DNA of 64,000 nucleotides from Paenibacillus azoreducens (GTDB taxonomy: Bacteria > Bacillota > Bacilli > Paenibacillales > Paenibacillaceae), in NCBI RefSeq assembly GCF_021654775.1, contig NZ_AP025343.1:5857501-5921500 (forward strand), written 5' to 3'. Shown here piece after piece: positions 37,387-56,519 of this stretch. The notes beneath the pieces were generated by a model. The model saw nothing but the letters and a program-made list of their open reading frames with translations, did no database searches and was not told the DNA's origin. A program made the translations under genes and the position numbers. Every line of letters starts with the position of its first letter. Position 1 is the stretch's first letter.

Positions 37387-37392
37387 TGCTTG

Positions 37393-40269
37393 CTACCTCC
37401 CCAGTGCGATATTATGTTTAATAGATTTTTGATTTAATGCTGTGGATACGATTTGTTGTTGTTCAAAGCCGTGCACCTGCTGGAAACCACTGGCGGTACT
37501 TGAACGTTCGGGACGGCCGTTGTAATTAACAGGCACGCCTTGAGGCGCCAATTTGCGGAGATGCGGCTCGATATAACGCCAAGCACCCATATTTTCCGGC
37601 TCTTCCTGTACCCATAAGATTTCCTTTACATTCGCATAACGAGCGATAATCTCGCGAATTTCCTGCTCAGGGAACGGATACAGCTGTTCCACGCGGATGA
37701 TGTGCAGCCAATCCATGGAGCTTTCTTCCTTCTCCAGCGCTTCCTCAAGCTCGATCGCGATTTTGCCGCTGCACAGAACCAGACGTTCAACACGCTCAGG
37801 GTGCTGGCCGAGTCCCGGCTGTTCCAAAGCGCGTTTGAAATGGCCGTCGCTAAGCTCCTTGCCGCTGGATGCAACACGGCTGTTGCGGATGAGGCTCTTC
37901 GGCGACATCATGATCAGCGGACGCGCATCTTCGCTTTCCGTCAAGGCCGCTTGACGGCGGAGCAAGTGGAAGTATTGGGCTGCGCTCGTCAGATTGACAA
38001 CGGTGAAGTTCTCTTCCCCGCCAAGCTGAAGGAAACGTTCCAGACGGGCGCTGGAATGCTCAGGTCCCTGCCCTTCATAGCCATGAGGCAGAAGCATCAC
38101 GAGACTTGATTTTTGTCCCCATTTGGAACGGCCGGCCGAAATGAACTGGTCAGTGATGACCTGCGCGCAGTTGGCGAAATCCCCGAACTGTGCTTCCCAG
38201 ATCACAAGCGTTTCTGGCGAATATACGTTATAGCCGTATTCAAATCCGAGCACGGAAGCTTCGGACAGCGGGCTGTTATGAATCGCAAAGGATGCCTTGG
38301 CCTGCGGCAGTTCATGCAGCGGGCAGAAGGTCGAACCGTTTTTCGTGTCGTGAAGCACGAGGTTGCGGTGCGCAAATGTCGCGCGTTCGGCGTCTTGGCC
38401 TGTAATGCGGATCGGTTTGCCGTCGGCAATGATGCTTGCGAAGGCCAGTGTTTCCGCCAAGCTCCAGTCTACCTTTTCCCCGTCATTCAGCGCCGTTTCG
38501 CGGCGTTCCAGAATGCGCTGCAGCTTCGGATACACATTGAAGCCTTCAGGGCGTTTCAGCAAGTCGGCGTTGATTTCACGCAGCTTGCCCAGCGGCACGC
38601 TTGTTTTGATCGTTTGAATCCGCTCTTCGGCAGGCGTTTGCTGATGAGTATTCGCAGGCTCCTGCTCTTTATCTTTGATCTTGTCGTACGCTTCTTTCAT
38701 CCGATTCTGCACGTCCTGAATCAGACGGGTGGTGCGTTCCTTGCTCACCATGCCTTTTTGTTCAAGCAGGCCAGCATAGATGGCAGCAACGCGCGGATGT
38801 TTTTTCACTCTGTCGTAAATGAGGGGCTGGGTTGTATCCGGATCATCCGTTTCGTTGTGGCCGTAACGGCGGTACCCCACCAGATCGATCAGGAAGTCTT
38901 TCTTGAATTTATTGCGGTACTCGCAAGCCAGGCGGATGGCGGCGATACATGCTTCCGGATCGTCGGCATTAACGTGAACAATCGGAATTTCATATCCTTT
39001 TGCCAGGTCGCTTGCATAATGAGTCGAACGGGAATCGCGGCTTTCCGTCGTGAAACCGATGTTGTTGTTGGCGATGATATGAATCGTACCGCCATTTTGG
39101 AATCCTGGCAGCTTATTGAAGTTCAGCGTTTCGGCCACAATGCCTTCACCAGGGAAAGCGGAATCCCCGTGAATCAGCACCGTTGCGGCTTTGTTCACAT
39201 CCTGTTTCGGATACCCCGGCTTCGTACGGTCTTCCTGGGCCGCACGGGCAAAACCTTCTACCACCGGATTGACGAATTCAAGGTGGCTCGGGTTGTTCGC
39301 AAGCGTAATCCGCGTCTGCACGACGCTTCCGTCTTTCAGGACGCGTTTGGCTCCCAGATGATATTTAACGTCGCCGGTCCATCCGAAGTTAATGCCCATC
39401 GAACCCTCGGAAGGGAACAGCTTTTTATTCGGCGAATGATGGAATTCGGAGAAAATCTTCCCGTATGGCTTGCCGAGCACATGCGCCAATACGTTCAAGC
39501 GGCCGCGGTGGGCCATCCCCATCAGAATATGCTCCGCGCCGTCGTCGGCCATGTTGCGGACCAGTTCGTCGAGCATCGGAACCAAAACATCGTTGCCTTC
39601 AATTGAGAAACGTTTTTGACCAACGAAGGTGCGATGCAGAAATTCTTCAAACTGCTCAACTTCAATCAGTCTTTCCAGCAAACCCACTCTTTCCGTTTCG
39701 CTTAGAGGCGCCGGAAAACTGTCGCCTTCGACATGGAGGTTCAACCATACGCGCTCTTCCGTGTCATGTACGTGGCTAAATTCGAATGCAATGGTTCCGG
39801 TATATTTTTGACGCAGCTTCTGGATGGCTTCCCAACCTGTTGTCACATGCTCTGGCGCTCCGTCCCAGATCAGGGATGCAGGAACAGCCGCAAGATCGGA
39901 CTGGCTCAGTCCGTATAGTTCAGGTTCAAGCACACGAGTGTCAGGCTTCGGAATGATCCCAAGCGGATCGATATCTGCAGCCAAATGGCCGTACGCCCGG
40001 ATATTCCAGACCAGCTTGCCGGCATTCACGCCTTTCTTGAGCAGATCGGCGTTGATCGGCGCGTTGGCTGGCGCGGCGCTTACAGGCGTCAGCTTTGCCG
40101 GCGCCATCGGAGGCGCGCCCCACAGCTGAAACACTTTGCGGAATGTTTCATCCACAGACTCCGGATCTTTCACATACCGTTCGTATTGCTCCTGAACGTA
40201 TCCCAGGTTGGGGCCGTAGTAAGATTCCCAGGCTCCCTGCGTTTGCGTGTCTTTCTTATTGGTTATCAT
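37393..40269 (-). CDS. odhA: 2-oxoglutarate dehydrogenase E1
   Basis: This ThDP enzyme decarboxylates 2-oxoglutarate and succinylates the OdhB lipoyl group. The 958-residue protein begins with the short E2-binding segment (WESYYGPNLGYVQEQYERYV) and has GMAHRGRLNVLAHVLGKPYG near 250, the ThDP-binding HGDSAFPGEG through IIANNNIGFTT near 370, and the C-terminal SPKSLIRN and QEEPENMGAWRYI of E1o enzymes. GGAGGT lies 12 nt before the ATG. A leader hairpin and a cre-like site lie upstream. Confidence 0.97.
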   Translation of the reverse strand: MITNKKDTQTQGAWESYYGPNLGYVQEQYERYVKDPESVDETFRKVFQLWGAPPMAPAKLTPVSAAPANAPINADLLKKGVNAGKLVWNIRAYGHLAADIDPLGIIPKPDTRVLEPELYGLSQSDLAAVPASLIWDGAPEHVTTGWEAIQKLRQKYTGTIAFEFSHVHDTEERVWLNLHVEGDSFPAPLSETERVGLLERLIEVEQFEEFLHRTFVGQKRFSIEGNDVLVPMLDELVRNMADDGAEHILMGMAHRGRLNVLAHVLGKPYGKIFSEFHHSPNKKLFPSEGSMGINFGWTGDVKYHLGAKRVLKDGSVVQTRITLANNPSHLEFVNPVVEGFARAAQEDRTKPGYPKQDVNKAATVLIHGDSAFPGEGIVAETLNFNKLPGFQNGGTIHIIANNNIGFTTESRDSRSTHYASDLAKGYEIPIVHVNADDPEACIAAIRLACEYRNKFKKDFLIDLVGYRRYGHNETDDPDTTQPLIYDRVKKHPRVAAIYAGLLEQKGMVSKERTTRLIQDVQNRMKEAYDKIKDKEQEPANTHQQTPAEERIQTIKTSVPLGKLREINADLLKRPEGFNVYPKLQRILERRETALNDGEKVDWSLAETLAFASIIADGKPIRITGQDAERATFAHRNLVLHDTKNGSTFCPLHELPQAKASFAIHNSPLSEASVLGFEYGYNVYSPETLVIWEAQFGDFANCAQVITDQFISAGRSKWGQKSSLVMLLPHGYEGQGPEHSSARLERFLQLGGEENFTVVNLTSAAQYFHLLRRQAALTESEDARPLIMMSPKSLIRNSRVASSGKELSDGHFKRALEQPGLGQHPERVERLVLCSGKIAIELEEALEKEESSMDWLHIIRVEQLYPFPEQEIREIIARYANVKEILWVQEEPENMGAWRYIEPHLRKLAPQGVPVNYNGRPERSSTASGFQQVHGFEQQQIVSTALNQKSIKHNIALGR

Positions 40270-40564: not shown

Positions 40565-41443
40565 CTATTCTTCAAAAAGCGATAATTGATCCGGAGGCAG
40601 TTCAGGAACCTCCAAATCCATCAATTTCATCAGCTGCATGGCATTGTCCGCCGCGTCGCCGCCCGAGTTGTTGTTGAAAATCACCCAGCAGTTTTGCGTC
40701 GATTCAAGCAACTTGTTTATATTGCGTTTCCATTCCAGAAGCTCGTTCTCATCGTACCGGTACAAATACCGTACTTCCCGCCAATTGGGCTGTCCGCTGG
40801 AATGCCAGCCGGACACGTTCCGGCCATGCAAGCGAACAAGCGTAACATCTTCCCGTGTCGGCTCTAGGATCGCGGGAATAGAACCTTCCCCGGCCTGCGG
40901 TTCATCGCAAACGGAATGAATCCAGCCCTCTTCACGCATAAAGGAAAGCGTCTTATCCCGCATCTCTCCGTCAAACCAGCTTTGATGCCGAAATTCCAGC
41001 GCCAGCGGAAATCCGTCCATCCATTCCCGGGTCCGGCGCAAAATATCGACATTTTTTCGCTCGCAGGCAAACCATGGCGGGTATTGAAACAGCACTGCGT
41101 TCAGCTTCCCCATCTCCCGCATTTCCGCCGCAGCTTCCCGGAATGCCCGAAACATCGACTTGGCATCTTCAAAGGGAATTTTACCGCGGGTATGCCCGGT
41201 CATTCCCTGATAAGCTTTGACAATAAAACCGAAGGATTCGGGTGTCTGCTCGCTCCACTTGCGCATTCTTTCCGGAGAAGGAACCGCGTAAAAGGAAGCG
41301 TCGAGCTCCACGATCGGAAAACGGCTGCTGTACTCTCCCAGCTTGTCTCCGGCCCTGGTTCCCTGCGGATAAATGCGGTCATGATCCCCCCAGCCCGCAA
41401 GGCCGACGAAAACATGCTTTTTTGCGATTGATTCGTGTTTCAA
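40565..41443 (-). CDS. DUF72 domain protein
   Basis: The 292-residue protein has the TIM-barrel-like DUF72 pattern (VGLAGWGDHDRIYP; FPIVELDASFYAVPS; AVLFQYPPWFACE; PLALEFRHQSWFD; VTLVRLHGRN; WVIFNNNSGGDAADNA). These proteins (YunF/YecE group) are uncharacterised. The gene starts with TTG, 11 nt after GGAG. It is the last gene before the region bordering the island. Confidence 0.92.
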   Translation of the reverse strand: MKHESIAKKHVFVGLAGWGDHDRIYPQGTRAGDKLGEYSSRFPIVELDASFYAVPSPERMRKWSEQTPESFGFIVKAYQGMTGHTRGKIPFEDAKSMFRAFREAAAEMREMGKLNAVLFQYPPWFACERKNVDILRRTREWMDGFPLALEFRHQSWFDGEMRDKTLSFMREEGWIHSVCDEPQAGEGSIPAILEPTREDVTLVRLHGRNVSGWHSSGQPNWREVRYLYRYDENELLEWKRNINKLLESTQNCWVIFNNNSGGDAADNAMQLMKLMDLEVPELPPDQLSLFEE

Positions 41444-41945
41444 TTGTTATCGACTCCATCATGTCTTAGTATGACCAACTATTTTCTTCCAATAACTTGG
41501 GTTTATTCACTTTAGTAATCTTTAACCATTCGCCGCATAAATGATCAATAAAATCATAAGTATTTCACATTATTTGTGCTCTGCATATCGTGTTAAGGCA
41601 CACAGGTTAGTATACAAGCTTTCGCAATTGGGTTCATGAAAAGGATGTAAAAAAGAGCCCGCTGCTTTCCAGCGAACTCCATGATACGGAATTAATGCTA
41701 TATAAGTTGAACTAAAGATTTTATGACCGTCATCATTGCGCATGCGGAGTATTCTTACGATCTCTGTTGTCCTCAGATTTCTTTTAATTTGTATGGTATG
41801 GCTGAAATCTGAGGACAGCTTATGCTTTCGACGCGAGCTTTCCAGAGGAAAGCTTTCAGGAGACCGCTTCGCTTCTTCAGAATAATTCCGCCTTCTCCGT
41901 TGAAGTATTCCTGTTCTTTTGTTAATTCTCATTCCCTATTCCGCT
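41444..41945. other. structured non-coding region next to the island border
   Basis: No gene is supported here. A perfect inverted repeat (GTCCTCAGATTTC 41769-41781 with GAAATCTGAGGAC 41804-41816) and a second hairpin (AGCTTTCC/GGAAAGCT, 41836-41854) form a structure-rich block ending near the glpD remnant. It resembles a non-coding repeat seen in paenibacilli, by recollection only. Confidence 0.5.
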
Positions 41946-42031
41946 TCCATCTGCAGGACGACCGCCTGATGCAGGGCGATGTCCAATTCTTTCGTATATT
42001 CGTCGCGCTGTTCCGGCGTCCGGCCTAGAGC
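41946..42031 (-). pseudogene. glpD 3'-end remnant, left direct repeat of the island
   Basis: These 86 bp are 77/86 identical to the 3' end of intact glpD (52061-52146), in the same orientation. On the minus strand they encode LGRTPEQRDEYTKELDIALH and then QAVVLQM, against [20 protein letters not shown] and QAVVPQM in GlpD. Four replacements (W/R, H/D, E/K, P/L) suggest relaxed selection. No start or upstream glpD sequence is present: the homology ends abruptly where the GH42-like gene begins. Confidence 0.88.
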
Positions 42032-45000
42032 TTCGTTATCGTAATGTCATCAATGCTCAAGGCCCCTCCATTATGGATCCCCCATATTAATCGGTAATCA
42101 TCATAATCATTCAGGGTAAACGTGAAGCTTCTCGAATACGAATCTCCTGGAGCTTCTGTCCAATGGTGGACCCCAACATCCTGATTAATCCCGCCGGTTG
42201 CGCTCCGGGCCAGGAAATAGAAGCTTCCCTCTTGTCCTGGCGCTATCACGGTCTTCGCCTTAAATTCCACCTTATAGGAAGCACCGGGTTCTAACCGAAT
42301 CCGCTCAGGATGACTGTAAAGAAACTCGTACCAATCCATTGAATCTTTCGCTTCGCCGTAAGCAGAGAAATTTCCGTCAATCACCTGATTCTTATTCGAT
42401 GATATTTGACCGTACTGATCGTGGAAGCCCGCGGTATAATGTGAAGCGGCAAAACTTCCCCCTTCAAAGCCCTCTGTCACATGGCCGGAAACGGGAGGAT
42501 TGCCCAATACAAAGATTGCCGTTTGACCCTTCTTCATTTCAATCTGAAATTCGTTGATATGCGTACCAATCAAAGTGTTGGTCATAATGTTGAATACCGG
42601 AGTTGCCCTTGGCAAACGAATCGTCTTCACTCCTGCCTTCGAAGCATGAATGCTGATCCATGCCTGATTTGCTTCCAGGTTATCATAGCTGTCGGTGTAG
42701 ACATGCACCCCCGCCTCTTTATAGAGCCGATTCAATACAGAAGCGGGTATCGGCGTTGATGCGACATATACCGAGCGCCAATCGGCAAAATCCTTCACAG
42801 CAATGACAGGACCTCCGTCCCTGACAGCTCTGCCCCATACGGCAGCATCAGAAACATCCGGTTGGAAGACTGGGTCCAGCACAGTTTCTCCATATATCGT
42901 ATCATTGTTAGGAAACAGTGCCGGGTCAAGTTTGAATGAAAGAGGAGGCGCACTCGCTTCTCTTACCTTCTTGATCGTAATATCATCTATAGATAATCCT
43001 CCGCCATTATGAATGCCCCATATCAATTTATAATCATCAAAATGCTTTAACGTAAAGGTGAAGCTCTTCGTATATGATTGTCCTGCATCATCCAGCCATT
43101 GATTCACGCCAACATCCTGGGCGACTCCTCCGGATGGGGAACGGGCCAGAAAATAATAGTAGCCGTCCTGTCCTGCCGCCGCAGTTGATTTGGCATTAAA
43201 CGTAACTTCATAAGTGGCCCCGGCCTCCAGTTTCACCTTACCACTGTCGCTGTAAAGAAATTCATGCCAATCCGATGTCGCAGGAGCTTGACCATGTGCC
43301 GAATATGGACCTGTTACGACTTGTTCCGGATCTGAAGTAATTGTACCGTACTGATTATATCCAGCAGTAAAATAACTCTTATCGAACGTTCCCGAATCAA
43401 AGCCTTCATGCACAACCGTTTTCGGTTCAAGGCTGCCGCCTCCGGCTGAAACCCGCTCCTGAAAGCCAAAGCCGGTAAGCTGCTCCATTTTCGGAACGGA
43501 TAATCCCTCAGCCGCATCCCCCGCATATCCTGGCGCCCAATTCCAAACTAATGTCCGGTTATGTTCCTTAAGTCTATTAATCGCTGCACGCTGCTTATCG
43601 GTTAATTGAAAAGTGTCCAAGAAAATATATACTTTATAGCGGTCCGGAATACGCCCTTCCTCCAAGTCCTCGATGAGATAGCGGTCGAATGGAGCTCCGG
43701 CGGCGCTTAATTCGCCCACGCCCTGCGGTTTTCCCAGCACTGGGCCTTCGTAGAAATTGGCTGATACATCTTTATCACCACCAAGGTAGAACGCACTTTG
43801 ATTCGAGGAAATGACCGCTACTTCTGAACAGCGTCCTCTCGGCAAATGCATGGAATAGTCCCCCCATTGCTTAAGCCGTTTGAACTCCGCAGCGATCTCC
43901 GGGGCATTATACCAATCGCCGGATGAATGGTCCATGTACCACATTCCCGTCGCATGCGTAACCGCTTGACCAAATGCCCGTTGAATGATACCCAGCGATT
44001 CATCCATATTCGTTGCAAGTACAAATGAGGTGCCCGGAGCAGCTAAATGAGTACGATCATCCGCTTCATCGATAAATAGCTTATTGTGCAACGCCAGACT
44101 GTCCGAATAAGTTCGGAGAGCGCCGTCCTCCCCGGGGCCGCGTCTCCAATACGTATGCGGCGAAGTCAACAGATCAACATTTGTCAAACGATGGGCAATC
44201 GCTGCCGCACGATGATGAATTTCCTGCGGCATATAGCCCATATCCGGGGTATAGCCATACAACACGGATACCAGCAAACGCCCCTGGCTCTCCTCCTTGA
44301 CAATGCCGGCAAAGTAATTGATCGCATCCACAACAGCCCGCTGGTAAGCTTCATAATAATCGACCAATCGAACGGAATCATTAGGATTGCGAAATAACCC
44401 GATGTCCGCTGATCTCCGTTCCTCCGCTTCAGGTATGGCAATCGTTTCAAAGGTAACTGCAGAATCCTTCCATGCTGCGCGCAGCGCATCCAAATTATGA
44501 TTGTATTTCTCTTCCGCATATCTAATATATGCCTGGCGCATAGGCTCGCTCGTATCCGGTAAATACTCCGCATTCCAATTATGCCATTCGCCATACATTC
44601 CGGCTGATAGCGTCAAGCCCATGAGCCGGTCCTTATAGGGTCCGTCCAGCAAATGCCTGACCATACTTCTCAGCATCTCGCCCGTCTCGGTGCGCCAAGC
44701 AAATGATGCCATCGATGCATCCCTATTGATCGCCGATTGTCCGGGAGCTATCGCATATCCTACCGCATCCTCGGGATGTTGGTCCAACCACCATTTAGGC
44801 GCCCATAAATGAAGACGCGGCAGCGCATATCCAGCGGGTACCCGATCCGAAAAGGTCTTCATGACTCGATCAATCGTCGAAAAGTCCTGCTGTCTATTGC
44901 CTACCCATCCCAGATCAAGAAAGCTGGTCTTTTCAATAAATGAATACAGTTTCACGCCGGCAGCCTGAAAAGCTTGGGCATCCCGCTCCGAAATTTCCTG

Positions 45001-45210
45001 CTCAAACAAAAACATCGGAAATTCGGGCCGATCATTAACAAATAGCGCAGGTGCGCCATTGTGATCTCCAAGGCGAAACGATGGCGCAGTAGGTGCAATC
45101 CGATCACTATTCATTGAAGCAGCCTCCCCTTTATCTTGTGCCCAACCGGTTCCTCCGCTAATCAGAAAAATCATTGCGCTTATAAGAAGCGCGATTTTTG
45201 CGTTTTTCAT
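42025..45210 (-). CDS. large secreted GH42-like glycoside hydrolase with two repeated modules
   Basis: The 1061-residue protein has a signal peptide (KNAKIALLISAMIFLISGGTG). Residues 40-460 resemble the beta-galactosidase GH42 barrel, with candidate catalytic Glu in AGMYGEWHNW near 208 and LFIDEADD near 382. Residues 465-575 resemble the trimerisation domain (AVISSNQSAFY; YKVYIFLDTFQLT). Two homologous modules of about 145 residues, 602-748 and 913-1059, both end LIWGIHNGG-LSIDDITI and are probably carbohydrate-binding. The last codons and TAG lie inside the glpD remnant. GAGG precedes ATG 45210. Confidence 0.85.
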   Translation of the reverse strand: MKNAKIALLISAMIFLISGGTGWAQDKGEAASMNSDRIAPTAPSFRLGDHNGAPALFVNDRPEFPMFLFEQEISERDAQAFQAAGVKLYSFIEKTSFLDLGWVGNRQQDFSTIDRVMKTFSDRVPAGYALPRLHLWAPKWWLDQHPEDAVGYAIAPGQSAINRDASMASFAWRTETGEMLRSMVRHLLDGPYKDRLMGLTLSAGMYGEWHNWNAEYLPDTSEPMRQAYIRYAEEKYNHNLDALRAAWKDSAVTFETIAIPEAEERRSADIGLFRNPNDSVRLVDYYEAYQRAVVDAINYFAGIVKEESQGRLLVSVLYGYTPDMGYMPQEIHHRAAAIAHRLTNVDLLTSPHTYWRRGPGEDGALRTYSDSLALHNKLFIDEADDRTHLAAPGTSFVLATNMDESLGIIQRAFGQAVTHATGMWYMDHSSGDWYNAPEIAAEFKRLKQWGDYSMHLPRGRCSEVAVISSNQSAFYLGGDKDVSANFYEGPVLGKPQGVGELSAAGAPFDRYLIEDLEEGRIPDRYKVYIFLDTFQLTDKQRAAINRLKEHNRTLVWNWAPGYAGDAAEGLSVPKMEQLTGFGFQERVSAGGGSLEPKTVVHEGFDSGTFDKSYFTAGYNQYGTITSDPEQVVTGPYSAHGQAPATSDWHEFLYSDSGKVKLEAGATYEVTFNAKSTAAAGQDGYYYFLARSPSGGVAQDVGVNQWLDDAGQSYTKSFTFTLKHFDDYKLIWGIHNGGGLSIDDITIKKVREASAPPLSFKLDPALFPNNDTIYGETVLDPVFQPDVSDAAVWGRAVRDGGPVIAVKDFADWRSVYVASTPIPASVLNRLYKEAGVHVYTDSYDNLEANQAWISIHASKAGVKTIRLPRATPVFNIMTNTLIGTHINEFQIEMKKGQTAIFVLGNPPVSGHVTEGFEGGSFAASHYTAGFHDQYGQISSNKNQVIDGNFSAYGEAKDSMDWYEFLYSHPERIRLEPGASYKVEFKAKTVIAPGQEGSFYFLARSATGGINQDVGVHHWTEAPGDSYSRSFTFTLNDYDDYRLIWGIHNGGALSIDDITITKL

Positions 45211-45318
45211 CTGATCCTCGCGACACCTTTCCATTAGAATGAAATAATTTGTCAAGGCATGTACCGCGTATTATTACCTCTTGCATTTGCACAAGCAACT
45301 GCTTATTGACGTGCCATC

Positions 45319-46581
45319 TCATATCATCAGGGAATCAATGAAATGCCGCATATCAATCATGGTATGGCTGACTCGCGATGCTTCTGCCGCAAAGGCCATC
45401 AGATGACTTTGAACCGAATTTTCGGCAGAAGACAGGCCCTTCGCGTATTCTCCAGAGTCAACGAGATGAATAAAATCTCGAACCATAATCCAGTCCCCGC
45501 CGCCATGACCGATATGCCCTTTGGGAGGTTGCAAAGTTATTTTCACCTCTTCACCTGTATCAAACCGCTTTACAATAATCTCATTGAGCTCCATGGCACC
45601 GCGAATTTCCCCTTTTGTCCCGGTCAGATGAATAAATCGTCCTCCATCCCGTGCAAAGGCAGTCATGGTGAATACAGCCGTTACTTCATTTTCAAACTCA
45701 AAATTGACAACTTGATGATCAACTACATCGTTCTCGCAATAATAGACACATCTTCCATATGGACCGTCATGCAGCGCCTTCAACCGTCCCTCATAGCTTA
45801 AATCGGCACTGATCGAGGTAGTAGGCCAGTCAATACTGTCCGTCAAATAAAAGTTTGGAGCATAATATTCACATGAAGCAGCGACAGGACAGCCGTCAAG
45901 GCATCTTTTAGGGGCTCCTTCCGGAGCATTCTCCGGTCTAAAATAAGAAAGCGCTCCGTATGAGGACACATAAGTGCATGGGGAATCGACGATCCACTGT
46001 AAAATATCCATATCATGACATGCCTTTGCGAGAATCATGGGACTGGATTGCTTCGAATTCCCCCAGTTTCCTCTCACAAAGCTGTGAGCCTGATGCCAAT
46101 AGCCTACATATTCATTGTGCTGAACCGTCATAAGTCTACCAATAGCACCCGATTGCAGCAGTTCCTTGATACGAGAGAAAAACGGGGTATAGCGAAGCAC
46201 ATGACATATCGAGAATACATTGCCTAGCTGTTTCGCTTTCTCCCCCATCTCGATGCATTCTTCCGGAAGCGGCGACATTGGTTTTTCCAGCAATACATGA
46301 TACCCTAATTCCAATGCGCGCATCGTTTGTCGATAATGGTCCTGATCCTGCGTGCAAATGAATACCGCATCCGCAAGCCGCTTCTGCGTAAGCAGCGCAT
46401 CTGCATCCATAAATACCTTCGACTCATCAATCTGATGCTTCTTCGCAAATTGCAGCCGTTTCTCCCAGTCGATTTCAGCAACGGCAACAATGGCCAACTC
46501 TTCCGGATGGGCTATTGCATAATCTGCATATACTTGGCCACGCACACCTGCACCTATGACAGCTACAGTCATTTTCTTCAT
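45319..46581 (-). CDS. Gfo/Idh/MocA family oxidoreductase
   Basis: The 420-residue protein has the N-terminal NAD(P)-binding motif VIGAGVRGQVYAD and the catalytic-site EKP in HVLLEKPMSP near residue 98, followed by the C-terminal alpha/beta domain. An extra cysteine-rich insert (CLDGCPVAASCEYYAP, around 225-240) is typical of one subgroup and may bind metal. Family members oxidise sugar hydroxyls, including steps in glycoside breakdown. It lies between the ABC permeases and the GH42-like gene, so it probably acts on the imported sugar. Confidence 0.9.
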   Translation of the reverse strand: MKKMTVAVIGAGVRGQVYADYAIAHPEELAIVAVAEIDWEKRLQFAKKHQIDESKVFMDADALLTQKRLADAVFICTQDQDHYRQTMRALELGYHVLLEKPMSPLPEECIEMGEKAKQLGNVFSICHVLRYTPFFSRIKELLQSGAIGRLMTVQHNEYVGYWHQAHSFVRGNWGNSKQSSPMILAKACHDMDILQWIVDSPCTYVSSYGALSYFRPENAPEGAPKRCLDGCPVAASCEYYAPNFYLTDSIDWPTTSISADLSYEGRLKALHDGPYGRCVYYCENDVVDHQVVNFEFENEVTAVFTMTAFARDGGRFIHLTGTKGEIRGAMELNEIIVKRFDTGEEVKITLQPPKGHIGHGGGDWIMVRDFIHLVDSGEYAKGLSSAENSVQSHLMAFAAEASRVSHTMIDMRHFIDSLMI

Positions 46582-46604
46582 GATATACCTCCACTGATGA
46601 TCAT

Positions 46605-47450
46605 TTAGCCTTTAATACCGCCCATTGTGAATCCGGATATCAGTTTCTCTTGTAAAAGCAAATACGCAACCAGAACCGGTAATACCGCAATCCACATCGC
46701 TGCAAACAGCACCGTATAATTCGCACTATACTTCTGAATCTCAACTAAATTAGCCAAGCCGACCGCAATCGTATATTGACTTTCGTTTTGCAGCAGAATA
46801 AACGGCTGAAAATAGTCATTCCAAATTCCTATAACAGCAAATGTGCTGACAGCTACAATTCCGCCTCTGGCGAGAGGAAGCATGATGGAAACAAATACTC
46901 GGAAATGACCCGCGCCGTCCATAAACGCAGCTTCTGCATATTCCCAGCTAATGCCTTTAAAGAAGGAATAAAGAATGATCATATTAAATCCAATCCCGCC
47001 TGTATAGCCCAGCATAACGCCAAGCGGATTGAACAAGTCCAGATTCTGCATCAGCAAATACCATGGTCCAAAGGTTCCGATTGTAGGGATCAGAAAACCT
47101 ACGATCGCCAATCCGTATATTACATTTGACCCTTTGAATTTGTACTTGGCCAGCACATAGGCAGGCATTGCGGCAAACATCACGGAAGTACACGTGCCAA
47201 TTGCCGTCATCCATACGCTATTAAAAAAGTATTGGCCTATATGGGCCGAGGACCACGCCTTCATATAGTTCTCCCATAACCATTCCTTGGGCAGTGACCA
47301 TATATTTTGAAAGAACTCGGTGTTGCTCTTAAGGGAATTAATAAACATCCATATAAATGGATAGATTAAGCTAAGCGCATACAGCATGAACAAAATTTGT
47401 ATAATGCCAAGTAAAACTATTTTAGCCGGGCTCTTATGTTTTATCGTCAT
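46605..47450 (-). CDS. carbohydrate ABC transporter permease, MalG type
   Basis: The 281-residue protein has six membrane helices and the binding-protein-dependent transport EAA loop (EYAEAAFMDGAGHFRVFVSIMLPLARGG) that contacts the ATPase. It is the second permease of a CUT1-type importer. No ATPase gene is in the cluster, as is common in Firmicutes where a shared MsmX-type ATPase serves several importers. Confidence 0.94.
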   Translation of the reverse strand: MTIKHKSPAKIVLLGIIQILFMLYALSLIYPFIWMFINSLKSNTEFFQNIWSLPKEWLWENYMKAWSSAHIGQYFFNSVWMTAIGTCTSVMFAAMPAYVLAKYKFKGSNVIYGLAIVGFLIPTIGTFGPWYLLMQNLDLFNPLGVMLGYTGGIGFNMIILYSFFKGISWEYAEAAFMDGAGHFRVFVSIMLPLARGGIVAVSTFAVIGIWNDYFQPFILLQNESQYTIAVGLANLVEIQKYSANYTVLFAAMWIAVLPVLVAYLLLQEKLISGFTMGGIKG

Positions 47451-47480
47451 AGCAGCCTTCCCCCCCTTTTCCTCCCGTTG

Positions 47481-48386
47481 TTAGAACTCTGCTGTATCCA
47501 TGCGTTCCGTCAACCACTTAATAGACCAGACCACAACGAACCCAATTACCGCAAAGATCATCCCGTATGCAGCGGCCATTCCATATGAATTCTTTTCTAC
47601 CACAAGTCTGTACATTTCCAGAGCCACCGTCGTCGAGGAATTGAACGGTCCGCCGTTTGTTAACAGCATGGGTTGAAGGAAGATCGTGAAAGCGCCGCTT
47701 GTGCCCAGAATAATAAGTGTGGAGATCGTCGGCCAGGAAATGGGCAGGACGATATAGTAAAGTTCCTTCCAGAAGTGAATCCCGTCCAGCTTCCCCACTT
47801 CGAAATAATCGGTAGGGATTCGTTGCAGAGCTCCTGTTATAATGACGTTGTTGTAGCCTATTCCGGCCCATATGCAAAATACGAAGACAGAAGCCAGAGC
47901 TGTCTGAGTATCACCAAGCCATACCCGTTTCCATGAGTCGAGGCTGAGCAGATTCAATAATCCGTTTACAATTCCTTGCGTTGGATTCAGTGCGAATGAA
48001 AATACCATCGTAATGACAACGATTGAAATGATAGACGGGAAGAAATATACGATCCGATAGAATCGTGAGAAAGGAATCTTTCGGTACAGCACCAAAGCAA
48101 CAATAAGCGACAGCACAATGCTTAACATGTTGACAGGAATAAAAAGCAAACTGTTTCTAATGGCGGATATCCATACGCCATCGGTAGCCATGCTTTTAAA
48201 AGCTGAAATATAGTTGTCAAAGCCAACCCACGTTTGCCTGCCGGTATAAGGATTCCAATTTTTAAAAGAATATAGCAAAGTTTGAATTTGCAGATATAAC
48301 CCAAACACAAGATAATGGATAAGAGGCCATGCCAGCATGATGGTGATAAACAAACCCCGTTTTGTAATCTTAAATCTCATACGCAT
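47481..48386 (-). CDS. carbohydrate ABC transporter permease, MalF type
   Basis: The 301-residue protein has six membrane helices and the EAA loop near residue 195 (DYFEVGKLDGIHFWKELYYIVLP). It pairs with the permease encoded 30 bp downstream. A hairpin between the binding-protein gene and this one may set their relative amounts. Confidence 0.94.
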   Translation of the reverse strand: MRMRFKITKRGLFITIMLAWPLIHYLVFGLYLQIQTLLYSFKNWNPYTGRQTWVGFDNYISAFKSMATDGVWISAIRNSLLFIPVNMLSIVLSLIVALVLYRKIPFSRFYRIVYFFPSIISIVVITMVFSFALNPTQGIVNGLLNLLSLDSWKRVWLGDTQTALASVFVFCIWAGIGYNNVIITGALQRIPTDYFEVGKLDGIHFWKELYYIVLPISWPTISTLIILGTSGAFTIFLQPMLLTNGGPFNSSTTVALEMYRLVVEKNSYGMAAAYGMIFAVIGFVVVWSIKWLTERMDTAEF

Positions 48387-48419
48387 TAAGTGTCCTTTCT
48401 TGTGATGGTGTAAGAACGA

Positions 48420-48452
48420 GAAGATCTGAATGATAAAACAGCTCAGATCTTC
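48420..48452 (-). promoter_or_regulatory. hairpin between binding-protein and permease genes
   Basis: GAAGATCTGA and TCAGATCTTC form a perfect 10-bp stem with a 13-nt loop right after the binding-protein stop. No T-run follows, which fits an mRNA 3' stabiliser or partial attenuator. Confidence 0.55.
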
Positions 48453-48464
48453 TTCGCCAACGCA

Positions 48465-49826
48465 TTATTTGGTATTGATCAACTTCTGGTTTTCCTTCCA
48501 TTTGTTAGGCGCTGCCTTGACATTTGCCTGGATAACTTCCTCAACAGTCTTGCTTCTTGCGGCTATCGCCGCATAGGCATCGATTCCCGGACTATCCGTG
48601 ATAGCTTGAGGAGCATAGATTAGGGCCACTGTTTTATATTTGTTCGTAGCTTCTATTGCACTTTTGGTAAAATCACTGATGTTAAGACCCTCAACCGAAT
48701 ACGTGAATGCTCTCGAAGAGCCTGTTAGCTCCGTAAACCTGCGATTTGCTTCTTCCGTTGAAGAGAATTGCAGAAATTTCTTTGCTGTTTCGATATTATT
48801 CGATACGCTTGGAATTCCGCCAAACCCGGAAGTTAGCGATTCGAGCACAGGCTCATGCACAACGGCATCTTTCGCAGGAGGAAATGGCATCATTTTCATT
48901 TGAAACCCTTCCGGAATAGAGTCTTTCATTTCATTCTCCAACCAAGCGCCATTTAGTATCATGGCTGCTTTGCCGCGTAAGAACTCCATCTGCGATTCTG
49001 TGTGATTCAACGCTAACGTGCCATCAAGCATCCACTTATCCTTAAACATCTGATCAAGCAATGTGAACGTCCGTTTGAAAGCGGGATCTTCATATAATCC
49101 GGGAATATCCGCCTCGGTAGGATTCGTCAATTTTTCAATGAATTCCGGGCCGCCATACTGCAAGTATGAGGCGTGTCCAAACGGAAATAGATAGTACGGG
49201 TATTGACCCGGATATATCAGTGGGGCAATCCCCTTCGCTTTGATCTGTTCGGCCAACTGCTCAAGCTCTTCCCAGGTGCTTGGAAAATTCCAGCCGTTGT
49301 CCTCAAACATCTTTACGTTGTATATAATGCCTTGCGATAATTGCGCCAAAGGAACGCCATACTTCTTGCCAAAGACATCCATTGACTTGTCCGTGGAATC
49401 CGTGATCTTCTCTTCAATCGTCTTGCCATCAGGCAGCTTCTCATTATACATATCCGTTAGATCCACAAGCTTTCCCGCGGGCCCCCATTTTCTCATTAAG
49501 GAGTCGTCCACAAAAACGACATCCGGCACATTGGTATTCGCTTCGATTCGCGGCTGAATAATATCATTCATCTTCGGATTGCCTTCCAATTCAACCGTCA
49601 CATTCTGATTTTCTTTCTCGAATTCTTCCTTCAGCCATTTAAACCACGCATCTCCGTACCCTCCTTGGAAAAACGCAACCTTAAGCGTAACCTTCCCTCC
49701 ATTGTTTTCGCCTTCTTGAGGCGCTGCAGTTGAAGGCTCCTTGCCACCGGACGATCCGGAACAACCTGCCAACAATCCGCTTGCCATAACTAGACTGAGA
49801 GACAAAGTTATCAATCTTTTAAACAT
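48465..49826 (-). CDS. extracellular sugar-binding lipoprotein
   Basis: The 453-residue protein has a lipoprotein signal (LSLVMASGLLAGC, lipidated Cys near residue 22). A Ser/Gly-rich linker and a family 1 solute-binding fold follow (VAFFQGGYGDAWFKWLKEEFE; MEFLRGKAAMILNGAWLENE). It delivers an unknown sugar to the CUT1 permeases. A perfect cre sequence lies 53 bp upstream of its start. Confidence 0.93.
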   Translation of the reverse strand: MFKRLITLSLSLVMASGLLAGCSGSSGGKEPSTAAPQEGENNGGKVTLKVAFFQGGYGDAWFKWLKEEFEKENQNVTVELEGNPKMNDIIQPRIEANTNVPDVVFVDDSLMRKWGPAGKLVDLTDMYNEKLPDGKTIEEKITDSTDKSMDVFGKKYGVPLAQLSQGIIYNVKMFEDNGWNFPSTWEELEQLAEQIKAKGIAPLIYPGQYPYYLFPFGHASYLQYGGPEFIEKLTNPTEADIPGLYEDPAFKRTFTLLDQMFKDKWMLDGTLALNHTESQMEFLRGKAAMILNGAWLENEMKDSIPEGFQMKMMPFPPAKDAVVHEPVLESLTSGFGGIPSVSNNIETAKKFLQFSSTEEANRRFTELTGSSRAFTYSVEGLNISDFTKSAIEATNKYKTVALIYAPQAITDSPGIDAYAAIAARSKTVEEVIQANVKAAPNKWKENQKLINTK

Positions 49827-49879
49827 AAACGCAGCTCCCCCTTATTTTTAGAAACGCCTGTCAGATTAAACCGAAGAAA

Positions 49880-49893
49880 TGTAATCGGTTACA
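49880..49893. promoter_or_regulatory. cre site upstream of the sugar-binding lipoprotein gene
   Basis: TGTAATCGGTTACA matches TGWAANCGNTNWCA at all 14 positions on both strands. It lies in the 107-bp gap after the nucleoside hydrolase gene. CcpA or another LacI-family repressor could bind it. Confidence 0.65.
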
Positions 49894-49933
49894 TATTTTA
49901 GTCTGAAAATTTCTTATTCCTATCATTATTCGG

Positions 49934-50833
49934 CTATGTTCTTAATACTCTATCTGCAAACATATCCATGATCCTGACATCATCAATCGATAAACAAACA
50001 TGCACATTAGGCTGACTAACGTGGCTCTCTCCGAAGTGAGGTTTCATACTGTATGTCATCCCTCTTGTATGTTCACCCTTCGTCTCGACCTGAACAGACC
50101 TCAGTTCGGCTACCGCCAAGCTTCTATCAATAAGAAGTGCAAATGGAATGGCATCGAACATAATAATCGGGCGGTTGACGCCTACGGATTGCCAACGCTT
50201 AACAAGACGCGCCAGGAAACTCATTTGTTCAGTACCATGGCTTAAGAAAGTCTCAACTGCTTGATCTGTATCGTAAGTTAAATCCAAACAAACCTCGAGG
50301 CCTGCTGCGGTTAACGGTATACCTGAACGGAACAATATATCCGCTGCCTCCGGGTCGCTAACAATGTTGTACTCTCTGTAATGAGCGCTGTATTCTCCCC
50401 CCATCAAAATGATTTCTTTTACATTGCGGATGAATTCCGGCGAACGCTCAATGGCCAAGGCGAGATTCGTCATTGCTCCGATGGCTACAATCGTAATTTC
50501 ACCGGGGGCTTTATTGACGAGACGGATCATCAGATCTGCCCCATCCACCTCGGAAACTACCGGAAAATCAGCTAGCTCCTCGCCGTACTGATTGGGATAT
50601 TCTTCGCGCTCACATTCGCCTGACAGCGGTGTTTGGGCTCCGGCGGCGACAGGAATATGATCCAGATGGTATAAATGAAGCAATGCGCTGGCAATCTTGG
50701 CTCTTAGGTCCGAGCGCATGCCTACCGTTGTAATGCCTTCGATCTGGAGTTCAGGAGAGTTGAGCGCCATTGTTATTGCCAACAAATCATCAATGTCTCC
50801 GCCGATATCAGTATCGATAATAATTCTGTTCAC
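49934..50833 (-). CDS. inosine/uridine-preferring nucleoside hydrolase family protein
   Basis: The roughly 299-residue protein begins NRIIIDTDIGGDIDDLLAI, the calcium-binding DTDxxxDDxxA motif of the family. It continues with IVAIGAMTNLALAIERSPEF, IILMGGEYSAHYREYNIVSDPEAADILFRS and a C-terminal Asp near FDAIPFALLIDRS. Such enzymes cleave N-glycosidic bonds of nucleosides in the cytosol, though some members act on other N-ribosides. GTG 50833 is chosen because AAGGTG lies 8 nt upstream. It is the first gene of the island operon. Confidence 0.9.
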   Translation of the reverse strand: MNRIIIDTDIGGDIDDLLAITMALNSPELQIEGITTVGMRSDLRAKIASALLHLYHLDHIPVAAGAQTPLSGECEREEYPNQYGEELADFPVVSEVDGADLMIRLVNKAPGEITIVAIGAMTNLALAIERSPEFIRNVKEIILMGGEYSAHYREYNIVSDPEAADILFRSGIPLTAAGLEVCLDLTYDTDQAVETFLSHGTEQMSFLARLVKRWQSVGVNRPIIMFDAIPFALLIDRSLAVAELRSVQVETKGEHTRGMTYSMKPHFGESHVSQPNVHVCLSIDDVRIMDMFADRVLRT

Positions 50834-51077
50834 TACCAACGCACCTTCCCGCAAGCCGTTTCTCAGATGTTGTATTCATGCTTTCAATCACGTCTCCCTA
50901 TTCTTAATTTCATTGCAACTGCAATTGCTATTTCTTTAAGCTCATTTTATATTTAACTCAAACAATAAACTATAATTGATCGGCTAAATAGTATCATCAA
51001 ACGTGCTTCACTATTGAAAAAATATTTTCTGTCGCAAGCATCTGCTTGGAAATTATGTCTGAGAGGAATGTAAATCA

Positions 51078-51863
51078 ATGAACTTCAGCCTTAATTTTCT
51101 TCAGTTTTATTACCTTCCTATGTCCGCTTCACCTGATTTTCATAAGCACGGGTGCTTTGAGCTGGTCTACTACAAAAGAGGAACCGGGCATACGAATATA
51201 GGCAGCAACCGATATGAATACCGTCCCAATACATTTGCAATCATACGCCCGAATATGCTGCACGATGAAAAGCATGACGAGGACACCGAAGTTTTCTTTA
51301 TCGGGTTTGATTATGATGATATCCCGATAAGTCTGCCGAATGGCGTTTTTGACGATGGACCCGATCATCATATTTGGCGGCTGCTGCAAAATATGAAGGT
51401 CGAATTCCTGGCGAAAAATAATTTCCACTCGTTGATGCTAAATCTTATTGGCAGTCAATTAATGCTGGAGGTTTGCAGAATTCCGCAAATCAGCTCGGGG
51501 GAACTGGAAAAAGAGGATCGCATCATATACGCGATTAATTTTTTGAAGGAAAATTACACGCAACCCGTACAGCTGCAGCACTTGGCTGAATTATCGGGAT
51601 ACAGCTTTGACCGCTTCCGACATGCATTCAAAGAACGAACCGGTCTTTCGCCGATGAATTACATTATGTTAAAACGCATAGAAAGATCCATCGAGCTGTT
51701 ATGTAATACACGCTTGAAGGTATCTGCGATAGCCAGTGAATGCGGCTTTGCGACTCCTTCGCAATTCAGTTCAATGTTCAAGAAGCATACCGGAATAACG
51801 CCTAAAGAATGCCGGGCAAATCCTCAGGCGCTGCCAGCAAAACCGATATTCTCCGAGGACTGA
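51078..51863 (+). CDS. AraC family transcriptional regulator
   Basis: The 261-residue protein has an N-terminal cupin-type sugar-sensing domain (HKHGCFELVYYKRGTGHT; FAIIRPNMLHDEKHD) and a C-terminal double helix-turn-helix (HLAELSGYSFDRFRHAFKERTG; IASECGFATPSQFSSMFKKHTG) from about residue 160. It is divergent from the catabolic operon with a 245-bp gap, so it probably controls that operon in response to its substrate. AGAGGAA precedes the ATG. Confidence 0.93.
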   Translation: MNFSLNFLQFYYLPMSASPDFHKHGCFELVYYKRGTGHTNIGSNRYEYRPNTFAIIRPNMLHDEKHDEDTEVFFIGFDYDDIPISLPNGVFDDGPDHHIWRLLQNMKVEFLAKNNFHSLMLNLIGSQLMLEVCRIPQISSGELEKEDRIIYAINFLKENYTQPVQLQHLAELSGYSFDRFRHAFKERTGLSPMNYIMLKRIERSIELLCNTRLKVSAIASECGFATPSQFSSMFKKHTGITPKECRANPQALPAKPIFSED

Positions 51864-51867
51864 CGAC

Positions 51868-51945
51868 ACTTCGTAAGAAAAACGTCTATCGACGTACTCT
51901 CATAGAAGACAGACCGCGTTTAGCGGTAATTTTTCTTGCGATATA
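51868..51945. repeat. R1 internal-module fragment
   Basis: CGTAAGAAAAACGTCTATCG through GCGGTAATTTTTCTTGCGAT matches the second internal module of the R1 copy at 8176-8463 but lacks both R1 ends. It lies between the AraC gene and the glpD terminator, inside the island border. Confidence 0.7.
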
Positions 51946-51985
51946 AGGATGCGAGATCTCCGAAGTTTATACTTTCTTATATCTT

Positions 51986-52019
51986 AAAAAAACCTCCGAT
52001 CTGTGCCTGATCGGAGGCT
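51986..52019 (-). terminator. terminator of glpD
   Basis: CCTCCGATC and GATCGGAGG form the stem, followed on the minus strand by seven T, 26 bp after the glpD stop. Confidence 0.92.
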
Positions 52020-52044
52020 TTGAATTTTCAAATTCCCAAGCGCT

Positions 52045-53721
52045 TTATTCCCTGCTCTGCTCCATCTGCGGAACGACTGCCTGATGCAGGGCAATGTCCA
52101 ATTCTTCCGTATATTCGTGGCGTTGTTCCGGCGTCCAGCCGAGAGCGGTAGCCATGAATTCAATGACGGGCTGCTTCCATTCGCGCACCCATTGAATGTT
52201 GAAGAAAAGCGCTCCCGTACGGCGAATGAAAAAGTCTACCGGTCTGATGGTCATTTCTTCGTCTATGGCGTATAGGAGCGGGACAAGCACTTCCAGCGGA
52301 AGTCCGCTTTGCATTGAATTCTCCCGATTGCGTTCCGCAAGTTCGAAGATGCGGTCCACGTTAGAGCCGTAGATGCGTGCCCATCGCTCGGCGAGCGCAG
52401 CGTCTAAGCCGCGGCGAACGCCTTCCTCTCTTTTCTTCTGAACGAAATGCGGGAATGCATCGGAGCCGCCCACATGTCCACCGGAAATCGGCATGTTCTT
52501 CGTCTTCGCCGCCACGAACGCCAAGCCTTCTTCTTTGCTCAGCAGTTGTATGACTAAGTCGACGATCGTTTCGGCCATTTTGCGGTAACCGGTAAGCTTG
52601 CCGCCTGCAATGGTAATCAAGCCGGAAGGGGATTGCCAGATTTCGTCCCGGCGGGAAATTTCGGATGCGTTTTTCCCTTCCTCATAGATGAGCGGCCGCA
52701 CGCCCGCCCAGCTCGATTCGATGTCTTCCGCAGTAAGCTGAATGGTCGGAAACATGTAGCGTATCGCAGCCATAATATAATCGCGGTCTTCCTTCGTCAT
52801 GACAGGCTGGATAGGATCGGCCTTATAGAACGTATCCGTGGTGCCTACATATGTCTTGCCGTCGCGCGGAATCGCAAATACCATCCGCCCGTCCGGCGTG
52901 TCGAAGTAAATCGCCTGCTTCAGCGGAAATTTCGACTGATCGATAACCAGATGGACCCCTTTGGACAGCTGAAGATGCTTCCCGGTCTTGGATCCGTCTT
53001 TGCTGCGGAGCTCATCAACCCAAGGCCCTGCGGCATTAATGATTTTTTTTGCCCGGAATTCATACCTTTCCCCATCCAATTGATCAACCACTCGCACACC
53101 GACGATCTTTTTATTTTCATACAGGAATGAATCTACTTTCATATAATTCAATGCCTTTGCTCCATTGCGAACCGCTTCCTTCATGACTTCAATCGTCAGG
53201 CGCGCGTCATCCGTGCGGTATTCCACATAATAACCGCCGCCCAGGAGCCCTTCCTGTTTCAGCAGCGGCTCGCGATTCAGCGTCTCCTGCATCGGCAGCA
53301 TGCGGCGCCGTTCACTGCGTTTGACTCCGGCAAGGAAGTCATAGACGCGCAGGCCGATGCCCGTGCTGAATTTCCCGAACGTGCCGCCGCGATGAAGCGG
53401 CAGTAGCATCCATTCGGGCGTCGTCACATGCGGGCCGTTCTCATAAACAATGGCGCGCTCCTTTCCGACTTCGGACACCGTTTTGATATCAAATTGCTTC
53501 AAGTAACGAAGCCCGCCATGTACCAGCTTGGTTGAACGGCTGGAGGTTCCTGCGGCAAAGTCCTGCATCTCGAACAATGCCGTGCGCAGTCCTCTCGTCG
53601 TCGCATCCAAGGCAATCCCGGCCCCGGTAATCCCCCCGCCGATCACAATTACGTCAAGGGGTTGTTCCCCTATAGCTTCTACAATCGATTTGCGTTTTGC
53701 AGCTGAAAATGTAACTGTCAT
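52045..53721 (-). CDS. glpD: aerobic glycerol-3-phosphate dehydrogenase
   Basis: This FAD enzyme oxidises glycerol-3-phosphate to dihydroxyacetone phosphate and passes electrons to quinone at the membrane. The 558-residue protein has the FAD-binding [17 protein letters not shown] near residue 22, [17 protein letters not shown] near 65, GPWVDELR and a second FAD contact [16 protein letters not shown] near 385. ATG 53721 follows AGGGAGG; longer in-frame starts lack a ribosome binding site. Its last 86 bp are repeated at the far end of the island. Confidence 0.96.
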
Positions 53722-53835
53722 CCGATTAACCTCCCTCGTCATACAGACGGTATAAAAGTGAGTATGCAGCGGTCTCAAGCAGACGGGACAACCGTCAGCA
53801 GGCATGTTCCATTCGCCCGCTTGAATCTCTTAAAC

Positions 53836-53886: not shown

Positions 53887-53946
53887 CAAGATTCTCCAAC
53901 CGAATTTAAATATTAACTTATTTAAAATTGTAGCATATTTCCTCTT

Positions 53947-55452
<1,506 letters not shown>

Positions 55453-55535
55453 TTAAGTATTATTGACATATATGAATCATCATTGCTTGATTATACTGAC
55501 TTTCTGCAATTCAATAAAAGCCTTGCATCAGGCGT

Positions 55536-56348: not shown

Positions 56349-56388
56349 AGAGACCCCTCCTAAACTTTATGAATGCTAAGAACACAAA

Positions 56389-56458
56389 GAGACCTACATC
56401 AAGTAGGCGCCTTATCTTCCCAGTGCAGGAAAGACGGGCACGTTTGAATGTAGATCTC
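56389..56458 (-). promoter_or_regulatory. leader hairpin of glpFK, probable GlpP target
   Basis: On the minus strand GAGATCTACATTCAA can pair with TTGATGTAGGTCTC, followed by TTTGTG, 41 bp upstream of glpF. It parallels the inverted repeat of B. subtilis glpFK that GlpP antiterminates. The T-run is short. Confidence 0.6.
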
Positions 56459-56490
56459 CAAGTCTCCATAACATTATTAACTTGATTCAA

Positions 56491-56519
56491 ATTTTATTTA
56501 AATTTGTAAACGTTGTCAA
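56491..56519 (-). promoter_or_regulatory. glpFK promoter with overlapping cre site
   Basis: TTGACA (56519-56514), a 17-bp spacer and TAAAAT (56496-56491) lie on the minus strand. TGTAAACGTTGTCA (56505-56518) matches the cre consensus TGWAANCGNTNWCA at all 14 positions and covers the -35, so CcpA would block RNA polymerase. The element starts 1 bp after the glpP stop. Confidence 0.85.

What the first reader, a model, noticed from the sequence alone, without database searches (positions are those of the whole stretch)
41946..52146. Ten-kilobase island bounded by 86-bp direct repeats of the glpD 3' end
The sequence at 41946-42031 repeats the last coding part of glpD (52061-52146) at 77/86 bases, in the same orientation. 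The intact gene is at one side and the degraded remnant at the other, with a complete catabolic operon and its regulator between. That is the geometry left when an element integrates at the 3' end of a gene and restores it. No integrase or transposase gene is visible, so entry by recombination with foreign DNA carrying a related glpD end is also possible.
Basis: partly seen in the sequence, partly recalled or inferred. Interest (0 to 1): 0.82.

Follow-up and report, generated by a model that had tools for sequence, protein, structure and literature searches.

The report
Foreign sugar operon beside duplicated glpD end
A seven-gene sugar-use cluster of foreign origin sits between an intact glycerol gene and a leftover tail of a second version of that gene, most likely the scar of DNA uptake and recombination rather than of a mobile element, which is uncommon to see so cleanly but is a known kind of event.

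Summary
Window 41946-42031 matches the end of glpD (52061-52146) at 77 of 86 bases; 200 shuffles gave at best 43. The match keeps the frame to a stop codon at 41936. Between the copies lie seven genes with deviant codon use (pooled GC3 0.48 against 0.59; codon-usage correlation 0.60, null 5th percentile 0.89). Their GH gene was found in 4 of 394 family genomes, this one included.

The integrase reading is not supported: no recombinase or transposase among 37 window ORFs scanned, no exact block over 14 bp, and the break lies at the GH stop codon. The remnant carries states that the intact end lacks, which suggests two alleles, though the two ends are still each other's closest match. Best explanation: homologous recombination in glpD on one side, an illegitimate join at a 5-bp microhomology on the other. 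No empty site was found: no relative examined has glpD beside DUF72.

Two dispersed repeat families flank the scar; one occurs in 99 of 394 genomes.

The parts
36127..40269 (-). OdhB and OdhA (2-oxoglutarate dehydrogenase E2 and E1), left flank
   Evidence: ORFs 36127-37386 and 37393-40269 (names recalled from the sequence, not scanned). OdhA lies beside DUF72 in 11 of 11 own-genus DUF72 loci fetched and in 0 of 18 from genera g25 and g31; in two further own-genus genomes, G027 and G037, they are far apart
40565..41443 (-). DUF72 protein, left flank
   Evidence: Pfam PF01904, E 5.7e-63
41654..41680 (-). terminator-like hairpin with T tract, downstream of the GH gene and the remnant
   Evidence: 11-pair stem; a consensus match only
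41691..41905 (-). dispersed repeat family A, just after the remnant
   Evidence: 45 matches in the own genome, of which one is the query itself and one the intact glpD end; the other 43 lie in this stretch (69-100% identity, the 100% ones being 23-24 bp; some are pieces of one copy; only 40 of 124 candidates were scored). 16 fetched stretches aligned, one sub-family with inverted ends CTATATAAGTTGAACTAAAGA. No match in the loci of other genomes compared
41936..42031 (-). glpD 3'-end remnant (31 codons plus TAG stop)
   Evidence: 77/86 to 52061-52146; frame kept to the stop
42025..45255 (-). secreted GH-like protein with two CBM_4_9-type modules; last gene of the operon; its stop TAG at 42025-42027 lies in the remnant. 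True start probably the ATG near 45210
   Evidence: PF02018 E 2.7e-8 and a PF02449 (GH42) match below cut-off; internal repeat D1. Homologs in L235 and L236 end at the same residues; the one in L238 is longer and ends in S-layer type domains
45319..46581 (-). Gfo/Idh/MocA oxidoreductase
   Evidence: PF01408 E 8.3e-23
46605..47450 (-). sugar ABC transporter permease
   Evidence: PF00528, NCBIfam matches below cut-off
47481..48386 (-). sugar ABC transporter permease
   Evidence: PF00528, NCBIfam matches below cut-off
48465..49826 (-). extracellular solute-binding protein
   Evidence: PF01547 E 2e-33
49934..50854 (-). nucleoside hydrolase-family protein
   Evidence: PF01156 E 7.4e-58
51078..51863 (+). 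AraC-family regulator, divergent
   Evidence: PF12833 E 4.2e-20
51871..51996 (+). dispersed repeat family B, between the regulator and the glpD terminator
   Evidence: 60 matches in the own genome, many 97-99% identical, some of them pieces, some in tandem with about 110-bp period (40 of 312 candidates scored); 99 of 394 family genomes
51993..52017 (.). terminator-like hairpin of glpD
   Evidence: 9-pair stem; on the minus strand followed by TTTTTTT
52045..53805 (-). glpD, intact glycerol-3-phosphate dehydrogenase
   Evidence: PF01266 and PF16901; 88-89% to four genomes of genus g25
53947..57080 (-). glpK, glpF, glpP (rest of the glp block)
   Evidence: 94-95%, 88-89% and 94-95% to the same four genomes; names recalled from sequence and order, not scanned

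Best explanation
The 42.0-51.9 kb segment is a horizontally acquired catabolic operon that entered by recombination, not by a mobile element. A donor molecule carried a related glpD followed by the AraC-regulated operon. It paired with the recipient's glpD (or further up in glpPFKD) and was exchanged by homologous recombination on that side. On the other side the end of the GH gene was joined illegitimately to the recipient's glpD about 100 bp before its stop, at the shared bases GCTCT. The incoming glpD end completed the gene; the recipient's own last ~100 bp of glpD were left downstream of the operon as a remnant, on the DUF72 side. This is homology-facilitated illegitimate recombination (HFIR). 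Shown: the repeat, the deviant codon use, the cut at the GH stop codon. Indicated: two alleles of the glpD end. Inferred: donor, order of events, the act of recombination.
For: Codon use: GC3 0.45-0.51 in the 7 genes, pooled 0.48, against 0.59 pooled (0.50-0.66) in 19 other window genes and 0.61 in the four glp genes; RSCU correlation 0.60, null 5th percentile 0.89, glp 0.93. GH homologs in 4 of 394 family genomes including this one, in other surroundings. The GH protein ends where its homologs in L235 and L236 end; in L235 a hairpin follows the stop at once (read by eye), whereas here glpD sequence starts at the stop, with GCTCT shared by both sides. Two alleles: on a tree of the last ~100 bases the intact end falls with four g25 genomes and the remnant with the other seven (ultrafast bootstrap 85); the remnant's last 22 bases match L163 at 17 and the intact end at 10 without gaps; of 9 differing sites the remnant has the state of all four g25 genomes at 3, the intact gene at 4, one is mixed, one neither. 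W to R and P to L in the remnant leave residues that are constant in the seven relatives tallied, as in a dead fragment. No recombinase in 37 ORFs. HFIR with a displaced old 3' part has been proposed for Vibrio T6SS clusters (PMC5361080, passages).
Against: The two ends are each other's closest match: 77/86, against at most 73/86 and 71/86 to any other locus compared, which also fits divergence after a duplication. Bootstrap 85 on ~100 bp is weak and partly rests on how the last codons are aligned. The recipient state, glpD next to DUF72 without the operon, was not seen. The glp block is closer to genus g25 (88-89% for glpD) than to the own genus (67% over full length; 71% over a 366-residue piece in G116), so at least one more exchange happened and the order is open. 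The GH homolog in L238 is longer, so that the GH end is natural rests on L235 and L236. One other window gene has GC3 as low as the operon (0.496), and GC alone dips elsewhere in the window too. HFIR is rare, is linked in a passage I read with 3-10-bp segments, and the same passage says it had not been described in B. subtilis (PMC6382021); 10 kb would be long. A 5-bp microhomology can be chance. Competence was not examined.
Confidence: 0.5

Rival explanations
1. A short duplication of the glpD end came first, as in relative G207, and the operon was later inserted between the two copies by an unrelated event.
For: G207 (L166) carries a 69-bp copy of its glpD end at 94% identity, starting at base 45 after the stop, so such duplications arise. 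The two ends in the window are each other's closest match.
Against: G207 was the only clear case in 98 downstream regions examined. It does not explain why the remnant starts at the GH stop, nor the states and last codons that the remnant shares with relatives but not with the intact end. Needs two events.
Confidence: 0.17
2. An integrative element once used the glpD 3' end as its attachment site and restored the gene with its own copy; the integrase was later lost or acted in trans.
For: Geometry: intact gene at one end, displaced 3' end at the other, same orientation, about 100 bp; an element-borne divergent 3' end would also give two alleles.
Against: No recombinase, relaxase or transposase in 37 window ORFs scanned. 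The segment is a bare operon. Longest exact block 14 bp. The join lies at the GH stop codon with no element sequence between. No second glpD end elsewhere in 21 other genomes by DNA search, but that search found not even the gene in 3 of them and did not report the known second copy in G207, so it is weak.
Confidence: 0.14
3. A larger unit, glpPFKD together with the operon (42.0-57.1 kb), arrived in one piece and replaced an older glp block of which only the last 96 bp remain. This is the best explanation with a longer exchanged tract.
For: glpPFKD is 88-95% identical to genus g25 genomes while own-genus glpD is far less similar; the intact glpD end groups with g25.
Against: glp codon use is like the rest of the window while the operon's is not; no sampled g25 genome had the GH gene at E 1e-100.
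Confidence: 0.13
4. The arrangement is old and vertical; relatives lost the operon and the remnant.
For: No empty site was found.
Against: Deviant codon use and GH in 4 of 394 genomes, in 3 genera.
Confidence: 0.03

Closest known systems
Homology-facilitated illegitimate recombination (HFIR) in natural transformation
   Same: One homologous side, one illegitimate side, foreign DNA gained between them (passages of PMC6382021; start of the abstract of PMC3240628)
   Different: Seen here only as a scar; 10 kb is long; competence and donor not shown
Stepwise displacement of T6SS effector-immunity modules in Vibrio cholerae, and of rhs C-termini
   Same: Anchor upstream in a shared sequence, new module inserted, old 3' part left downstream as an orphan (PMC5361080, passages)
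   Different: There immunity genes stay intact and displacement recurs; here one housekeeping gene end, no function seen for the remnant, one event
Genomic islands integrated at the 3' end of a protein-coding gene by a tyrosine recombinase (recalled, not tested on a reference set)
   Same: Restored gene plus displaced 3' end as direct repeat
   Different: No recombinase found, no long exact core, no element genes, breakpoint at an operon's stop codon

Membership tests
Integrase-type genomic island | Recombinase gene in the element | tested here: not met
   0 of 37 ORFs scanned against Pfam, all 7 operon genes among them; 55 ORFs of 100 aa or more remained in the window after overlap removal, and most short ORFs were not scanned
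Integrase-type genomic island | Direct repeat restoring the target gene's 3' end | tested here: met
Integrase-type genomic island | Exact att core shared by both ends | tested here: inconclusive
   longest exact block 14 bp; an old insertion could have decayed
Integrase-type genomic island | Empty site in relatives | tested here: inconclusive
   no glpD-DUF72 adjacency in 20 glpD loci, 29 short DUF72 loci or 8 long own-genus DUF72 loci; same-species strains not held
HFIR scar | Homologous anchor on one side | tested here: inconclusive
   signs of two alleles of the glpD end, but the ends are each other's closest match
HFIR scar | Microhomology at the other junction | tested here: inconclusive
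   GCTCT, 5 bp; compatible with chance
HFIR scar | Foreign DNA between anchor and junction | tested here: met
   codon use and distribution
HFIR scar | Uptake and RecA-dependent event | not testable with these tools
   needs bench work
GH42 | Pfam PF02449 above cut-off | tested here: not met
   19.5 bits against a cut-off of 21; a number of the 91 homologs listed carry PF02449

The most novel reading that the evidence does not exclude
The 3' end of glpD is a recurrent recombination site in this family, and bare catabolic operons without any recombinase of their own move there by borrowing the glpD tail as their attachment or homology arm.
Probability: 0.07. Interest if true: 0.55.

Novelty: new member of a known kind. 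Interest (0 to 1): 0.3.

Why it matters
It is a well-preserved natural scar that suggests how a whole catabolic operon can be gained with no mobile element, with the displaced gene end serving as a label for the breakpoint. Scars of this sort could be found by searching genomes for short direct repeats of gene ends around operons. It also shows that restored-gene geometry alone should not be read as an integrase island.

Tried and rejected
Chance match: rejected. Exact recent copy of the present gene end (target duplication): disfavoured, because the remnant keeps states and last codons found in relatives but not in the intact end; not excluded, since the ends are each other's closest match. 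Truncation of the GH gene at the junction: unlikely, homologs in L235 and L236 end at the same residues, though the one in L238 is longer. Known RNA family at the edges: none at gathering scores in the whole window; for 51850-52050 only chance-level hits, best E 0.033. tRNA target: ARAGORN found no tRNA in the window. Phage or plasmid carriage: no GH match in 72,556 plasmid records, no pattern match in viral contigs, no near match of 41600-52200 in 50,697 phage records. GlpD has relatives on 697 plasmid records, 2 of them at 60% identity or more. Solved structure for the GH protein by sequence: none at E 0.001. Mosaic breakpoint inside glpD: identity to the four g25 genomes dips from about 90% to 77-83% at alignment columns 600-800; suggestive, not tied to the insertion. 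Literature: terms on glpD islands gave 1 paper, listing only, not opened; Paenibacillus dispersed repeats: 0 papers with four terms, 26 with three of four looser terms, 10 listed, none on such Paenibacillus repeats by title. After checking against the calls I lowered the best explanation from 0.55 to 0.5 and raised the duplication rival from 0.14 to 0.17 and the integrase rival from 0.13 to 0.14, because the closest-match result, the longer homolog in L238 and the weakness had been left out.
Full report
The observation. In 200 base shuffles of the interval the best match was 43 of 86. On the minus strand the remnant keeps the glpD reading frame for 31 codons and ends in TAG at 41936-41938, so it looks like the true 3' end of a glpD gene. 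A protein search of the own genome finds only the intact gene and this fragment.

What lies between. Seven genes: a GH-like secreted protein with carbohydrate-binding modules, a Gfo/Idh oxidoreductase, two permeases, a solute-binding protein, a nucleoside hydrolase-family protein and a divergent AraC regulator. Their GC3 is 0.45 to 0.51, pooled 0.48, against 0.59 pooled for 19 other window genes (range 0.50 to 0.66, so the lowest of them overlaps) and 0.61 for the four glp genes. RSCU correlation to those 19 genes is 0.60, whereas 300 random gene sets drawn from them gave a 5th percentile of 0.89, and glp 0.93. GC content alone is less telling, as other parts of the window dip as low. In 394 genomes of the family the GH protein occurs in 4 at E 1e-100, this one included, each time with most of the same operon; L235 lacks the Gfo/Idh gene. 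G343 has two copies about 24 kb apart. In L235 an arabinose isomerase-like gene, recognised by recall from its sequence, lies on the far side of the GH gene, which hints at a pentose-containing substrate; this was not tested.

The junctions. The GH protein ends at the same residues as its homologs in L235 and L236; the homolog in L238 goes on into S-layer type domains. In L235 a hairpin follows the stop at once (read by eye, with a weak T tract); here the stop codon itself lies in glpD-like sequence. The bases GCTCT are shared by the GH end and by the intact glpD at the corresponding point. I read this as an illegitimate join.

Two alleles, probably. On a tree of the last ~100 bases with 11 of the 20 fetched relatives, the intact end falls with four genomes of genus g25 and the remnant with the other seven (ultrafast bootstrap 85). 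Of 9 differing sites in the 86-bp block the remnant has the state of all four g25 genomes at 3, the intact gene at 4, one is mixed and one neither. The last 22 bases of the remnant match L163 at 17 without gaps and the intact end at 10. The remnant also has W to R and P to L changes at positions constant in the seven relatives tallied; at the E to K site relatives vary. Against this, the two ends are more like each other (77/86) than either is to any other locus compared (at most 73/86 for the intact end, 71/86 for the remnant). The evidence is modest, since the alignment is short.

Relatives. glpD of this genome is 88-89% identical to four g25 genomes. In the own genus 32 of 100 genomes, this one included, have a match at E 1e-30, the best others at 67% over full length, with a 366-residue piece at 71% in G116. 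The glpPFKD block has no shared flanks with the relatives examined. Right after glpD the four nearest genomes differ, though three of them share a gene cluster from 3-6.5 kb onward; in two of the four the ORF scanned there is a transposase of the Mutator or IS1595 type. OdhA lies beside DUF72 in 11 of 11 own-genus DUF72 loci fetched and in 0 of 18 from g25 and g31, but not in two further own-genus genomes. None of 8 own-genus loci has glp genes or the operon in the 16-19 kb upstream of DUF72. So no empty site exists in the sample. A DNA search of 21 other genomes listed no second glpD end, but it missed the gene itself in 3 of them and did not list the G207 copy.

Mechanism. The simplest account is one exchange: homology in glpD on one side, microhomology at the GH end on the other, leaving the recipient's own gene end displaced. 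HFIR is documented for transformable Streptococcus, Acinetobacter and Pseudomonas, and, according to the same passage, not for B. subtilis competent cells before that study (PMC6382021, passages); it has also been reported in E. coli conjugation (PMC3240628, start of abstract in the listing). The same geometry has been proposed for Vibrio T6SS modules (PMC5361080, passages). Against it stand the rarity of HFIR, the length of the segment and the unobserved recipient state. The integrase account needs a recombinase that was not found.

Flanking repeats. Just after the remnant lies a dispersed repeat (family A, about 200 bp): 43 of the 45 matches lie in it, some being pieces of one copy. Between the regulator and the glpD terminator lies another (family B, about 120 bp, 60 matches, many 97-99% identical, some in tandem). 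Both counts are lower bounds, since only 40 candidates were scored. Family B occurs in 99 of 394 genomes, in four genera, at E 1e-10. In 41 fetched sites a hairpin by my own criterion follows its 3' end within 14 bases in 16, against 2 of 41 on the 5' side (Fisher p 0.0003) and 9 of 85 control stretches (p 0.0006); several of the 41 share flanks, so these p-values are too small. On 20 aligned copies 2 of 23 stem pairs show a change on both sides, one of them C-G in 11 and A-U in 9, and the covariation term is near zero. A loose parallel is the pneumococcal SPRITE repeat, enriched near gene ends (PMC3049150, passages). I found no evidence that either repeat caused the insertion.

Verdict. Real, foreign by codon use, and best explained by ordinary though rarely seen recombination; not a new kind of element.

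Noticed in passing
window 51871-51996; L259-L278, L285-L304: Dispersed repeat family B: about 120 bp, two small hairpins and a longer stem, at least several dozen copies in this genome, 99 of 394 family genomes in four genera, often directly beside a terminator-like hairpin (16 of 41 sites against 9 of 85 controls). No Rfam family at gathering score.
   Followed up: partly
window 41691-41905; L219-L234: Dispersed repeat family A, about 200 bp, dozens of diverged copies; one sub-family has inverted ends CTATATAAGTTGAACTAAAGA, as in a MITE.
   Followed up: partly
window 52045-57080: glpPFKD block is 88-95% identical to genomes of genus g25 while own-genus glpD is at best 67% over full length, with no shared flanks: probably itself exchanged between genera.
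   Followed up: partly
L166 (G207), just after glpD: Local tandem copy of 69 bp of the glpD end at 94% identity, from base 45 after the stop, near repeated motifs TAACGAAACACTGTATCGCTAT.
   Followed up: partly
L236 and L237 (G343): The homologous operon occurs twice, about 24 kb apart; seven of its genes have the same identity to the window in both copies, and each copy has a second GH homolog after the Gfo/Idh gene.
   Followed up: no
window 8201-8272: A further partial copy of repeat family B (89% over 72 bp).
   Followed up: no
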